Assembly (NCBI GenBank): GCA_010015805.1
Contig: ML978122.1
Coordinates: 2,204,453-2,268,452 of the forward strand
From: Rhizodiscina lignyota
Lineage: Eukaryota > Ascomycota > Dothideomycetes > Aulographales > Rhizodiscinaceae
Direction of reading: 5' to 3'
DNA length: 64,000 nt
Below the pieces are notes generated by a model. That model ran no database searches. It was not told where the DNA came from and worked only from the letters and a program-made list of their open reading frames with translations. Made by a program: the position numbers and the translations under genes. Of this stretch, positions 32,749 to 37,406 are shown piece by piece. Numbering within the stretch: position 1 is the stretch's first letter; each line of letters opens with the position of its first letter.

Positions 32749-33864
32749 ATGGCTTCTACGCACGACTCTCCTCCAAACTCCGACACCACCGGAAAGCGAA
32801 AGAGGGCATACTCTGTCCCAGACGTCGAGGCCACTATTCGTGATGAAATTCAAGCTGGTGTCAAAAAGATACGAGAGATCTTCACCACCGAGATATACGA
32901 ACTCAGAACGGCTGTTCAGGCCAACTCCACGCTCATTGCTGGCACTCAGCAGGCAGTCTCGATGAAACAACATACCATAGAAACGAACACAACACAACTC
33001 CTAAATACCAATAGGCGTGTCCTAAAGGCCTGGGAGGCGATTTTTCGCCTTCAGGTTAAACTTTTGAAAGCCAATAACACAACTCAAGCTACAAATTCAG
33101 AAAGAACCGTGCTACAGGAGCAAATGCAGGACGAAGACCCCTTATCAGGTCCCATAGCCCCGGACGATATCGTTCACCCAGACGACGCGAGTAGTGTGTC
33201 AGCAATACGAGCACCTCTTTCTCCGCCCAGAGATATGAATTACTCTACGATTTCCTCTACCCCATCTTTGTTCTCTACGGCGCCACCGAACCTTCCTGGA
33301 ACGATACACATCACCGGTACTGAAGACATATTGTAAAAATGCAAGTGCAGAACGGGATCTTGCGCCAACTGCAGGTGCAGTGTCAAAGGTTATATGTGCT
33401 CTGCAGCTTGTCGTTGTGGTGGCCGCACCTTTTGTGGGAGTCCGATCAACTACTTGTCAGGGGCCATTTTCGGTGCCACCACTGGCTTTCAATTAATTGT
33501 CTGTTTTCTCAAATACGTCCGAGAAAACAGGAAGAAGGGACGCACCATTGACCGCTTCCACTTGCGAGATCAACTCCTACCTATCCCTGAAGAAATGATT
33601 CGTCGCGATCCTGGACTTCAGCGCTGGCAAATAAACTGGGACAATTTCTCTGAGAATGAAAGAGATTCCTTACTTCTCCCTGAGCTGTTCAAGCTCGCAC
33701 TGACAGAGAATCCCTGTGATTTCAAATACTCTCACTGCACTAACTCCTGGGAAGGAGTGGACGATACATGTGACTACGAGGGGTACACAAGCTGTGACGT
33801 GTCACGGTTCGATCAGCGGGAGTTGTCACCGCCGCGTAGCCTCTTACCACATCGCCTGCAATAA
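32749..33864 (+). pseudogene. CXC-family copy A, interrupted
   Basis: From the ATG at 32749 the frame codes 195 residues: a KRKR basic patch near 17-20 and a helical, Gln/Thr-rich region. It then meets TAA (33334-33336) directly before the cysteine domain. In the same frame it continues KCKCRTGSCANCRC, GYMCSAACRCGG, FCGSPIN, then RWQINW, LFKLALTENP and YSHCTNSWEGVDD, ending at 33864. The order matches copies B and C, so the TAA splits one ancestral protein. Near 33770-33830 the match seems to move to another frame (CNKLPCEACDS), which would end at 33976; this second lesion is tentative. No intron that would remove the TAA is apparent. Copy A lacks the introns of B and C and is the most diverged. 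Confidence 0.65.
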
Positions 33865-33976
33865 GCTGCCTTGCGAGGCCTGCGATAGTCTTGCTTCTCG
33901 ATGGATCTTGGGGACTTTGAGTGGCATACAGGGGCATTTTGTTTTCCTTCTTGTATCTGGTGCAAACCCGACCTGA

Positions 33977-34582
33977 AAGTCCAATTTGAAGCTTTTCATA
34001 ATTGCTTGGATTTGATGTCACTTGTACTCAGCCCAATTACTCGGGAAGAATCCAGTCTTGAGCGTGAAATAGAAACCATGTAAAGTAGCACTTATTCTGA
34101 TATTTGAAATTGACTGGGGGAAGCCTGAGAGTTGATACAACTTGGCCGTCGGCGCAAGTTGAATTAGTACCTTGTCAGTGTAATAAAAATATCAGCTATC
34201 TATGGGTCAATTTCAGTAAGACGCGAGTTGTGATATCGTAATAGTAATTGAACGCGTTTCAGACATAACGCGTCTTTCTACCACCGTTTTACGCGTTCCG
34301 GGTATTAGATGCGTAATGGTTCACATTTCGAGCTACTGCAAGGACGCCATACTACCCTGGGGCCATCCCGCGCCAAATTTAGGGGGATTATACAGTAAGA
34401 ATGAGCATAGTTCTGGAGGGGTGTATCGACGGAACGTCTCCTTAAAGCCCGCTCTCCTCCTTCATATCTCTCATGAACATTCAATCCAACTCACAACCTA
34501 CATACATTCCAAACCTTCGTAATAATCTGTCCTTTTAGAACATCCACTCATTATTCAAACTCTTTCATTCTTTTTCTGAACA
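33977..34582. other. Spacer and promoter region of CXC copy B
   Basis: No gene seen except possible remnants of copy A at its left edge. The right part holds three ACGCGT boxes and one ACGCGA (34221). Confidence 0.5.
34252..34296. promoter_or_regulatory. Cluster of three ACGCGT (MCB-like) boxes before copy B
   Basis: Exact ACGCGT at 34252-34257, 34268-34273 and 34291-34296, with ACGCGA at 34221-34226; the start codon is at 34583. A single 6-mer is expected about once per 4 kb, so three in 45 bp is well above chance. In yeasts MBF (Mbp1-Swi6) binds this core to drive G1/S transcription; its use here is inference. Confidence 0.6.
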
Positions 34583-35701
34583 ATGCCCAAACGAAGACGC
34601 GGCGGGCAGGCGAATTGGGACGCCTACTGGACCAGTGCTCGCATTAAAGAAACGCTGAACGCAATCTATCGTATTCAAATGGAGACAGATGTGAGCATTT
34701 CGCTTCAACACTATTGTTTTCGATGTGTCCGTCTGAAATTACCTCTCGTTTGCTGACCTTGTAAAGCGGCGCTTCCAAATAGGCCTATCGGTCGAAGATT
34801 GTATTTCTGATCGTCGAGTCCCCGGAGACATGAGGCAAGAAAGTGACCTTGAGCTAGTGTCTCGATCTATTCAGGACGATATGGACAACTTAATCCAGTT
34901 AGAGGATGAACAACATAGTTGGGCGAGCGGACAATGCACGGAGGTATGTTTCCAATAAAACTTATTGTGAGTTTGGCCGTGAAAGGAGTCTGACGATATC
35001 ATTCCCAGGTTACTATCAAACCACCCGAAACATCTACTTTCCAGAAGATGACCTGTCGTTGCAAAGGAGCCTGTAAAGGATGCAGGTGCAGCAAATGGGG
35101 AAAGGGTTGCAGTTCGTCCTGCGGCTGTGCACCAAACTCTGCCTGCCAGAATCCTTTCAATACTATCACCACCCTCTTCGAAGAATCTGAGTCTGTGCCA
35201 CAACTAAACGGTTGTTTCGTGTCCTACGTCCGCCAACAAGCTACACAGAACAACAAATGAAAAGATGGGAAAGAAGGGAATGAGATTACAGCACATTCGC
35301 TACAGCGTCTACTTCTGGGTGGAGCGTCTTACGTTACTGATCTCGATGACGCGTGCGAATTCGACGATGACCTGAAGGATTGGAAAGACAAGTGGGATAC
35401 AATGGTAGAGAATGAGAGGCCGGAGCATTTGAAGAAGCTCTTCTTCATCGCCCTCACTCAGCGGGGCAAATGGTTCTACTCGTTCTGCAGGGGTTCGTGG
35501 GAGGAGGAAGTATGCACCACGCATTGCTGGGGTTGCGGAGAGTGCGCCGACTGGAGAGAGTGGCATTGCAAGAACTGCAAGAACTGCGTTTATGGAGTAT
35601 CCAGTGCATGCGATGGCTGCGGTGGTGTTAGCAATTCGTACGATCCGTCTCGGGATAAGCCGCCGGTAGGTTCGAGAGCGGGTAGGTCAAACTCACCTTG
35701 A
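34583..35701 (+). pseudogene. CXC-family copy B, interrupted by TGA
   Basis: Exons 34583-34690, 34767-34943 and 35009-35701, with 76- and 65-nt introns, form one frame except for TGA at 35258-35260. Order: basic start MPKRRRGG; a helical acidic region; intron; VTIKPPE; the CXC-like domain CRCKGACKGCRC-x6-C-x3-C-x-C-x5-C-x-NPFN (about 110-146); GCFVSYVRQQATQNNK; the [54 protein letters not shown]; then a second cysteine cluster [27 protein letters not shown]. Copy C has Arg (CGG) where B has TGA, so a CGA to TGA change would explain it. Upstream product: about 178 residues with the CXC domain only. Inactivation or readthrough are both open. Confidence 0.7.
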
Positions 35702-36154
35702 GATGACTTCTGGTTGTTCTGCTTGAGCTTTTGTACTGTAGAGCCTCCCGTTTATTGGTGGTGCTTTTAATTATCGATGTCTTTCGACTGCATGTGGGCT
35801 TCGTGTCAGGTTAGCGTAAAATGGTCTTCTTATTCGGGGATATAAAATCCATGCGAATTGTGACCAGTCCAAATCGTTTCGAGCGATATTCTCCCTTTGA
35901 AAAATTGTGCCTTCCGCAGTGGTTCGCGTCACTGGCGTGTGAGGCCGTCGCGAGTCAGTTCGAACCAACCCCAGCTTGACATGACTCAGTGCAACGCGTC
36001 TTCCATGCACGCGTCACGCCCCTTTCACGCGTCAGAAGTCCGAAACTGTGTTTCACCATAATTCCCCGAAGACCCGAACCGTTTGATTGATACTGCAATG
36101 ATTGTCTGCATTCAAAAAGTCTAGCCTTTCACAACTTTTCTAAGAGCTAGCGCA
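35702..36154. other. Spacer and promoter region of CXC copy C
   Basis: A 450-bp spacer with no gene; three ACGCGT boxes sit 120-160 bp before the start codon of copy C. Confidence 0.5.
35994..36032. promoter_or_regulatory. Cluster of three ACGCGT (MCB-like) boxes before copy C
   Basis: Exact ACGCGT at 35994-35999, 36009-36014 and 36027-36032, in 39 bp, ahead of the ATG at 36155. It is the same arrangement as before copy B, although the flanking sequence is not obviously a duplicate, which favours retained function over simple copying. Confidence 0.6.
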
Positions 36155-37406
36155 ATGGTTGATAAGAGGACAAAGAGATCGAAACCCCAGAGAGTATGGA
36201 GAGAAAACAAGGCGAGAAAGAGACAAAAAACGTCGCCCCGTTGTGAAATCATCGATACTGTGGAATCTCGCATTGTGAACATCACGGAATGCTTACGGAA
36301 GGACATTGAAGCTATAAGAACCAAGGTGGCGCAAGAAGAAGGCGGAGACGAAGCGGAGATATTCAGATATGGCGCTGCCGTTCTAAAGGAGATAGAGTGG
36401 ATGGAAACAGAGCACTACCGCATCTGGCGGCGCCGACAAAAAACAACTCCGACAGATCAAGACGACCAGCATAACGAAGGATCAGACGAAGGTGCCGATG
36501 GAGGCCTCGATGACAGCGAAAATGGCCGTGACACGAACTCCAATGAGCCACCTTCAGAGCAAAGATATCAGCCAAATGCTACATGTACAGAAGTATGTGT
36601 CCTTTGCCAGGGCGAAGTCTGGCGACTGAAGTGAACTGACATTTCACAGGTTACTACTATCCCCCCAGAACCTTGCGTACTTCAGGACATAAAGTGTACC
36701 TGCAATGGCACTTGCAACCGGTGCAGCTGCAGCAAATGGGGTAAAGCCTGCAGTTCTTCGTGTGGATGTGTGAAAGACTCTGCTTATGCTGGGTGCAATA
36801 ATCCGTTTCAACAATATCGCGTGCTTTTTCGAGGAACCCGAGGCCGCTTTACAGCTGACTGATTGCTTTGTGCACCACGTACGTGCTGTAGCTGGACGAA
36901 ATAATAAGCGGAAGCACTGGCGGCTGGAAATCACTGAGCAATCGCTCAAATACCTGCTATTTGGGGGAGGAAAGTTCTACGCCTCCCTTGGAGAAGGGGC
37001 AACGCTCCACCCTGTAGGCCAGGCGTCCATACCACCGACACCAAAGGGCGACGCTTTCAAATCTGATGATGAACTAAAGGATTGGAAGAGTAAATGGAAC
37101 GCGATGACGGACGAGGAGAAGCCACAGCACCTGAAGAAGCTCTTCGAGCACGGCCTAACGAATCATCGCGGTAAACTGTTCTACTGCTTTTGTCGAGGCT
37201 CGTGGCAGAATACGGAGCAAATAAGGCACTGTTGGACGTGTGGAGAGTGCATGGAGGCCTGGAGACAATGGCACTGCGGAAAGTGCAAGAAATGCGTTTA
37301 TGGAGTCACTCTTCCATGCGCTCGCTGCGGAGGCGTCAGCAGTACGTATCATCAGTACCACGCCCCGGAGTCGAGCGATTTGGAGACCCCGTTTGTGTCA
37401 ACTTGA
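36155..37406 (+). pseudogene. CXC-family copy C, with one +1 frameshift
   Basis: Exon 1 is 36155-36592 (146 residues, with basic runs KRTKRSKPQR and KARKRQK, a helix and an acidic Asp/Gly/Asn tract). After a 57-nt intron (GTATGT..CACAG) exon 2 starts at 36650 with VTTIPPE and the CXC-like domain CTCNGTCNRCSC-x6-C-x3-C-x-C-x7-C-x-NPF. At TTT (36806-36808) one surplus T shifts the frame; the original frame stops soon after, while the next frame continues [68 protein letters not shown] and the second cysteine cluster [27 protein letters not shown] to 37406. An ATG at 36786 could start the second part alone. Apart from this base the copy looks well preserved. Confidence 0.7.

What the first reader, a model, noticed from the sequence alone, without database searches (positions are those of the whole stretch)
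32749..37406. Tandem family of two-cluster cysteine proteins (CXC domain plus a C-terminal Cys cluster)
Seen: three adjacent same-strand genes share a basic N-terminus, a domain C-x-C-x3-4-C-x2-C-x-C-x6-C-x3-C-x-C-x5-7-C-x-x-P-F/I-N, a W-x3-W ... LF-x3-LT ... F/Y-x2-C-x2-SW block and, in B and C, HCWxCGEC..WHCxxCKxCVYGVxxxCxxCGG. Known: CXC domains of Tesmin/TSO1/MSL2 type bind DNA, and cysteine-cluster domains accompany KDZ-type fungal transposons. I do not recognise the combined architecture. Inference: a nuclear, DNA-binding, locally expanded family, perhaps domesticated from a mobile element.
Basis: partly seen in the sequence, partly recalled or inferred. Interest (0 to 1): 0.75.

Follow-up and report, generated by a model that had tools for sequence, protein, structure and literature searches.

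The report
Decaying copies of cross-kingdom zinc protein
Three neighbouring fungal genes, all broken as assembled, belong to an unnamed, probably zinc- and DNA-binding protein family that also occurs in bacteria and archaea, where some copies sit in anti-phage operons or in a jumping gene.

Summary
A fourth copy in the genome is open through both clusters, so the tail belongs to the gene. Synonymous sites are near saturation, replacement sites are not: old duplications, late decay.

The family is real: 33 homologous proteins, four with named sources, fungi and one insect. Pfam has no whole-length model. The first domain is CXC-like (nine Cys). The tail is a separate probable zinc module, weakly like ZCCHC4/DHHC.

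Unexpectedly, the same architecture occurs as ~155-aa proteins in bacteria and archaea: 46 of 50 loci found. In 5 of 6 archaeal loci it directly precedes pglZ, in a BREX operon where tested. In one Desulfobacteraceae genome it lies in a duplicated ISKra4-like element.

Most likely a zinc-stabilised DNA-binding adaptor; the window copies are dying paralogues. Function is inferred.

The parts
32749..33333 (+). Gene A, N-terminal part: basic stretch, then charged region, probably helical (inference)
   Evidence: Open frame; no Pfam family over cut-off
33334..33336 (+). Gene A: in-frame TAA stop before the CXC domain
   Evidence: no convincing intron skips it
33340..33450 (+). Gene A: CXC domain, nine Cys, C-x-S at its end instead of C-x-N
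   Evidence: tblastn with P0015 E 9e-10
33451..33861 (+). Gene A: middle region with W-x3-W, then divergent end without the tail cluster
33797..33961 (+). Gene A: possible degraded relic of the tail module, in another reading frame (tentative)
   Evidence: overlapping tblastn hits, best E 0.006 in a search of 833 bases
34583..34690 (+). Gene B exon 1 (basic start); intron 34691-34766 proposed (other acceptors possible)
   Evidence: intron scan
34767..34943 (+). Gene B exon 2, ends in ..CTE before intron 34944-35008 (GTATGT..CCCAG)
35009..35698 (+). Gene B exon 3: CXC, middle and tail, cut by TGA 35258-35260
35054..35161 (+). Gene B CXC domain
35258..35260 (+). Gene B in-frame TGA stop
35468..35626 (+). 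Gene B tail module
   Evidence: 48-52% identical to four bacterial and archaeal proteins over 52 aa
36155..36592 (+). Gene C exon 1 (basic), ends ..CTE before intron 36593-36649 (GTATGT..CACAG)
36695..36808 (+). Gene C CXC domain
36800..36835 (+). Gene C: one-base frame change somewhere in this stretch (edges approximate)
   Evidence: near a T-run, so possibly an assembly error
36774..37403 (+). Gene C second open frame (stop to stop): middle region and tail
37131..37334 (+). Gene C tail module
   Evidence: 41-46% identical to four prokaryotic proteins over 68-75 aa

Best explanation
Shown: A, B and C are three old tandem paralogues of one gene family. Each is disrupted as assembled, and a fourth copy elsewhere in the genome is open. 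Members that cover both ends typically have a nine-cysteine CXC-type domain, a region of varying length, and a tail module (..SFC..HCxxCxxC..WREWHCxxCxxC..G..CxxC). The same architecture occurs in bacteria and archaea.
Inferred: the CXC domain holds a Zn3Cys9 cluster and binds DNA, as in MSL2 and LIN54. The tail is a second zinc module of the ZCCHC4/DHHC kind, serving as a nucleic-acid or protein contact and not as an enzyme. The protein is therefore a small DNA-binding adaptor or regulator.
In archaea it is the gene before pglZ in BREX operons, so it probably regulates or targets that system. In one Desulfobacteraceae genome it is carried in an ISKra4-like element. Fungal members have a basic N-terminus and an intron, and probably work in the nucleus. 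In this genome the tandem copies are being lost.
For: Family: (33 proteins). Fourth copy open through both clusters. Old divergence under constraint: B against C pS 0.64-0.76, pN 0.21-0.25 (37 and 120 codons). CXC: nine Cys invariant in the 12 segments aligned, of 19 CXC-bearing rows; Pfam TCR over cut-off in L065, 29.7 against 23.5 bits, and in the isolated P0033 segment, 26.0 bits; published CXC consensus met by 39 of 39 prokaryotic ORFs called. Tail: Foldseek to ZCCHC4 E 0.07, probability 0.85, on a model with mean pLDDT 82.9. Cross-domain: 50 loci, 46 with both clusters; C4 second exon against L028 E 5e-18 over 193 columns, 27% identical. BREX. Insertion element.
Confidence: 0.6

Rival explanations
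1. The window genes are remains of a transposon-encoded CxC/KDZ-type protein, domesticated or orphaned.
For: CxC modules accompany fungal KDZ transposases (passages of PMC12810828 and PMC7641404). One bacterial relative is insertion-element cargo. Distribution is patchy.
Against: No Pfam CxC or KDZ match. No transposase among 20 other ORFs scanned by Pfam, 16 of the window and 4 of the C4 locus; 6 of the 20 matched no family. Four copies found, old, and the two intergenic stretches tested are single-copy. The KDZ search had no working control.
Confidence: 0.15
2. A, B and C are working genes; the stops and frame change are assembly errors, or are bypassed by splicing, editing or read-through.
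For: Replacement sites are far less changed than synonymous ones. In B and C I found one lesion each. C's lesion is near a T-run. Introns with GTATGT donors are kept in B and C.
Against: Two lesions are in-frame stop codons without a length change. A also lacks an intact tail. No convincing intron removes the lesions and keeps the conserved residues.
Confidence: 0.15
3. The tail is a catalytic DHHC-type acyltransferase centre.
For: Same HCxxCxxC-x6-HC spacing as DHHC20 in the profile alignment. Weak Pfam DHHC hits in 3 of 16 segments.
Against: The position of DHHC reads EWHC or similar. The only DHHC or DHYC string in the 33 found proteins is in P0023 (DHYC), outside the tail position. C4 has no strongly hydrophobic 19-residue stretch.
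Confidence: 0.03
4. The protein is a metal store (metallothionein-like), with no nucleic-acid role.
For: Eighteen conserved Cys, nine in each cluster. L041 lies between hypB- and hypC-like genes.
Against: Conserved aromatic and charged tail residues, a basic N-terminus in the copies of this genome, CXC spacing, and placement in BREX operons and an insertion element.
Confidence: 0.07

Closest known systems
CXC domain superfamily (Tesmin/TSO1, LIN54, MSL2; Pfam PF03638 TCR, PF16682 MSL2-CXC)
   Same: Nine cysteines in the same order, and Asn two residues after Cys9 in 16 of 19 CXC-bearing rows. The 39 prokaryotic ORFs called fit the published consensus.
   Different: Window and C4 copies have only 2 residues between Cys3 and Cys4. 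One CXC, not the tandem pair of tesmin proteins (L065 has two). No LIN54-type Tyr in the 12 segments aligned. Followed by a tail module that the passages read of the CXC papers do not mention.
ZCCHC4 C-terminal CCHC domain / cysteine-rich domain of DHHC palmitoyltransferases
   Same: Best PDB fold match of the model; by VIA-align it spans model residues 87-189, which hold the tail. Similar HCxxCxxC-x6-HC spacing to DHHC20. The ZCCHC4 paper itself notes a remote DHHC resemblance and a role in RNA binding (passages).
   Different: Weak scores. No methyltransferase, no sign of several membrane helices, no DHHC motif at the tail position. Three hairpins with further CxxC pairs.
BREX defence operons (PglX, PglZ, BrxL)
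   Same: Archaeal relatives are the gene directly before pglZ, 2-3 bases apart or overlapping.
   Different: No 'CXC' in the 2026 BREX survey by word search; it does mention a small zinc-finger, HTH-like protein in Type-4 BREX, and I cannot tell whether that is related (passages). PADLOC gave no model for it. The fungal genes are not in such an operon.
KDZ-associated CxC clusters of fungal transposons
   Same: Cysteine-rich modules in fungal genomes.
   Different: No Pfam match in the members scanned; no transposase in the 20 neighbouring ORFs scanned.

Membership tests
CXC superfamily | Nine cysteines as three-zinc ligands in fixed order | tested here: met
   Invariant in the 12 segments aligned, chosen from 19 CXC-bearing rows. 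Zinc itself not testable.
CXC superfamily | Published spacing CX[C/H]X2-13CX4-7CXCX5-60CX2-4CX1-2CX2-15CXN | tested here: not met
   0 of 4 copies of this genome; 3 of the 19 CXC-bearing rows (P0015, P0023, P0033). Met by 39 of 39 prokaryotic ORFs called. The window copies are therefore filed as deviant CXC-like, not as strict members.
CXC superfamily | Asn two residues after Cys9 | tested here: met
   16 of 19 rows; B, C and C4 yes, A no (Ser).
CXC superfamily | Match to Pfam TCR above its cut-off | tested here: inconclusive
   No hit for the A and B pieces; C's CXC was scanned only as a segment, where 4 of 12 segments matched at E up to 0.5. L065 passes, L028, L053 and L067 just miss, L047 is lower, L042 none. 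The P0033 segment passes.
Tesmin/LIN54 family | Tandem CXC pair with a minor-groove Tyr before Cys4 | tested here: not met
   One CXC in each window copy; no Tyr there in 12 of 12 segments (role from passages of PMC4974476).
CXC superfamily | DNA binding | not testable with these tools
   -
KDZ transposon CxC clusters | Match to Pfam CxC or KDZ models | tested here: not met
   None at E up to 5 for six window pieces or up to 10 for C4 and ten relatives.
KDZ transposon CxC clusters | KDZ transposase adjacent or in the genome | tested here: inconclusive
   None found, but the controls were silent.
DHHC palmitoyltransferase | DHHC (or DHYC) motif at the catalytic position | tested here: not met
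   Position reads EWHC or similar in the tail alignment.
DHHC palmitoyltransferase | Several membrane helices | tested here: not met
   C4 best 19-residue hydropathy 0.63; highest of 24 relatives 1.64, one borderline stretch in P0002.
BREX-associated gene (archaeal relatives only) | Conserved operon with PglZ and BrxL | tested here: met
   PglZ next door in 5 of 6 archaeal loci and in L086; BrxL after it in the same 5, cut by the locus end in L030 and L033. PADLOC run on seven proteins of L046 and L036 only.
BREX-associated gene (window genes) | Same, in the fungal window | tested here: not met
   No BREX family among the 16 window ORFs scanned by Pfam; PADLOC was not run on the window.

The most novel reading that the evidence does not exclude
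CXC-plus-WHC proteins are a travelling DNA-binding module shared by all three domains of life. They act in conflicts over foreign DNA: a BREX accessory factor in anaerobic archaea, cargo of an insertion element in bacteria, and a nuclear protein in fungi (and one insect) that guards against, or once belonged to, mobile DNA. The window shows this module being lost from one fungal genome.
Probability: 0.3. Interest if true: 0.78.

Novelty: new variant of a known kind. Interest (0 to 1): 0.55.

Why it matters
CXC domains are known to me mainly from eukaryotic chromatin proteins (recall). A family that pairs such a domain with one tail module in fungi, an insect, bacteria and archaea, and sits directly before pglZ in archaeal BREX operons, gives BREX researchers a candidate component that I did not find described. 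It also gives chromatin biologists a small CXC protein to express. It would let the DNA-binding mode of single CXC domains be tested in a minimal protein, and it poses a clear question about gene flow between prokaryotes and eukaryotes. For the window itself the finding is modest: old paralogues in decay.

Tried and rejected

Papers: passages seen of PMC3447885, PMC12810828, PMC7641404, PMC6834594, PMC4974476, PMC12839542; PMC12730594 searched for words, none found (82). All other papers: search listings only. Nothing describing this architecture was seen in searches, which cover open-licence PubMed Central papers only.
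Full report
1. What is in the window. The three genes lie on the + strand between a Rieske-like gene (ORF 30483-31085, Pfam UCR_TM) and an NADP-mannitol dehydrogenase gene (38308-39108; PDB 3gdf, E 4e-140), in a 33.4-Mb genome of 29 contigs that is fungal by its genes (inference). Each has a basic start, a nine-cysteine domain and a W-x3-W block. B and C also have the tail cluster. B and C have an intron with a GTATGT donor directly after a ..CTE motif; C4 has a possible GTTAGT donor after ..RTE. 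Eight relatives show a similar [V/I]TE before the CXC region or in an N-terminal fragment (P0001, P0004, P0015, P0019, P0023, P0024, P0027, P0018 by eye); P0002, P0008 and P0009 do not. I read this as a conserved exon end, which is inference.

2. All three are broken. A has a TAA before the CXC domain; its tail is at best a relic in another frame. B has a TGA between CXC and middle. C changes frame by one base after the CXC domain. I scanned GT-AG introns that would bypass each lesion; none of the best 12 shown per gene combines a fair donor with retention of the conserved residues. Between B and C synonymous differences are 0.64-0.76 per site and replacement differences 0.21-0.25; B and C against C4 give synonymous 0.76-0.95 and replacement 0.19-0.38, on 27-127 codons. 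I infer old copies, long constrained, and late lesions. There is no clear RIP signature, and the two intergenic stretches tested occur once.

3. The family. One phmmer and two profile searches gave 33 proteins. Four have named sources: Gnomoniopsis, Hymenoscyphus albidus, Nemania and the fungus gnat Bradysia coprophila. The Bradysia record lies on a 12.7-Mb contig. Over 39 rows (33 proteins and 6 pieces from this genome) 30 have the strict tail pattern and one a partial one; 19 have the CXC pattern, 16 of these with Asn after Cys9. Thirteen rows have both patterns in one sequence, P0015 a fourteenth with the partial tail; others are fragments, separate pieces or lack a complete CXC as held. 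P0018 and P0019 are N-terminal fragments only. Pfam has no model for the whole in the pieces and relatives scanned; PF03638 and related CXC models match weakly, above cut-off among these only for the isolated P0033 segment.

5. The surprise: prokaryotes. A scan of a collection of 84,980 bacterial and archaeal species genomes with the tail alone gave 50 loci from 72 matching stretches. By reading frames, 46 have CXC and tail together: 38 by my ORF caller, and 8 more, read by eye, whose ORF my overlap filter dropped (in L042 no usual start codon precedes the CXC). Of the other four, L061 is decayed, L075 shows only the tail, and L076 and L077 are chance. All 39 called ORFs (L041 has two) meet the published CXC consensus and have an extra CxxC before the tail. 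By record titles they span Methanosarcinales and Methanoperedens, Desulfobacterales, Chloroflexota, Planctomycetota, Bacteroidota and others, including a chromosome-level record (L042) and a named strain (L067), so contamination by fungal DNA is an unlikely explanation. The intact fungal C4 second exon aligns with L028 over 193 columns at 27% identity, E 5e-18. In a tree of 58 tail columns, 30 eukaryote-type rows and 38 distinct prokaryotic rows fall on two sides of one branch (support 95/86; the bootstrap had not fully settled, and few inner forks are resolved); prokaryotic phyla are mixed. Rows without a tail, P0033 and the 8 uncalled loci were left out. This fits one ancient or single exchange between the domains and exchange among prokaryotes. 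The direction is open.

6. Company in prokaryotes. In five of six archaeal loci (L028, L030, L033, L036, L046) the order is a 120-aa protein, the CXC protein, PglZ, then BrxL (cut by the locus end in L030 and L033), with 2-3 bases or an overlap between the CXC gene and pglZ. The sixth (L038) has the 120-aa gene but no PglZ in its locus. A further genome (L086) has PglZ next door. PADLOC, run on seven proteins of L046 and L036, calls PglZ (E 5e-275) and BrxL (E 0) in L046 and PglX (E 1e-194) in L036; Pfam calls BrxB in L036. Bacterial neighbourhoods vary. Of ten bacterial neighbours from seven loci that I picked by eye, seven gave PADLOC hits: in L062 the gene lies between JetB and JetC of a Wadjet-like set; others are restriction, methylase or ATPase proteins or a candidate. 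This was a biased pick with no control, so I claim no enrichment. In Desulfobacteraceae Eth-SRB2 the gene lies with a 477-aa ORF (split in L056) that is 23-25% identical to two annotated ISKra4 transposases over more than 80% of its length, in a 2.3-kb unit with two copies 95.7% identical. Pfam gave no family for that ORF. The unit's ends are inverted repeats (18 of 25; 0 of 20,000 random pairs reached 17). L055 keeps a similar left end and a transposase relic. The gene is rare: 2 of 392 and 1 of 395 genomes in two phyla, the query genomes included.

7. How it most likely works. Steps shown: the architecture, conservation, lesions, cross-domain spread, operon and element company. Steps inferred: zinc binding by both modules, DNA binding by the CXC domain, nucleic-acid or protein contact by the tail, nuclear location in fungi, and a regulatory or targeting role with PglZ in archaea. 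LIN54's minor-groove Tyr is absent and MSL2 is reported to use an arginine, so the DNA mode, if any, may be nearer to MSL2; that is inference.

8. Verdict. The window genes are decaying members of a family that I did not find described, and its prokaryotic branch is the more interesting part.

Noticed in passing
L028, L030, L033, L036, L046: Archaeal BREX-type operons with a conserved 120-aa gene (no Pfam match for the L046 copy) and the CXC protein directly before pglZ.
   Followed up: partly
L053:4633-6918 and L056:4633-6895: ISKra4-like element carrying the CXC gene as cargo, two copies 95.7% identical in one Desulfobacteraceae genome.
   Followed up: partly
L062:4023-8699: CXC gene lies between JetB-like and JetC-like genes (Wadjet-like set).
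   Followed up: partly
L065:4572-5183: Bacterial member with two CXC domains in tandem before the tail, as in tesmin proteins.
   Followed up: no
L041:47-2382: Two tandem CXC proteins between hypB-like and hypC-like genes.
   Followed up: no
window 734-2137, 7307-8851, 60825-62576: Three HET-domain (heterokaryon incompatibility) ORFs in 64 kb.
   Followed up: no
window 25842-30089 (-): ORF for a mitochondrial-type single-subunit RNA polymerase.
   Followed up: no
L046:2-1774: GajB-like helicase ORF (PADLOC E 8e-176) upstream of the BREX genes, a possible defence island.
   Followed up: no
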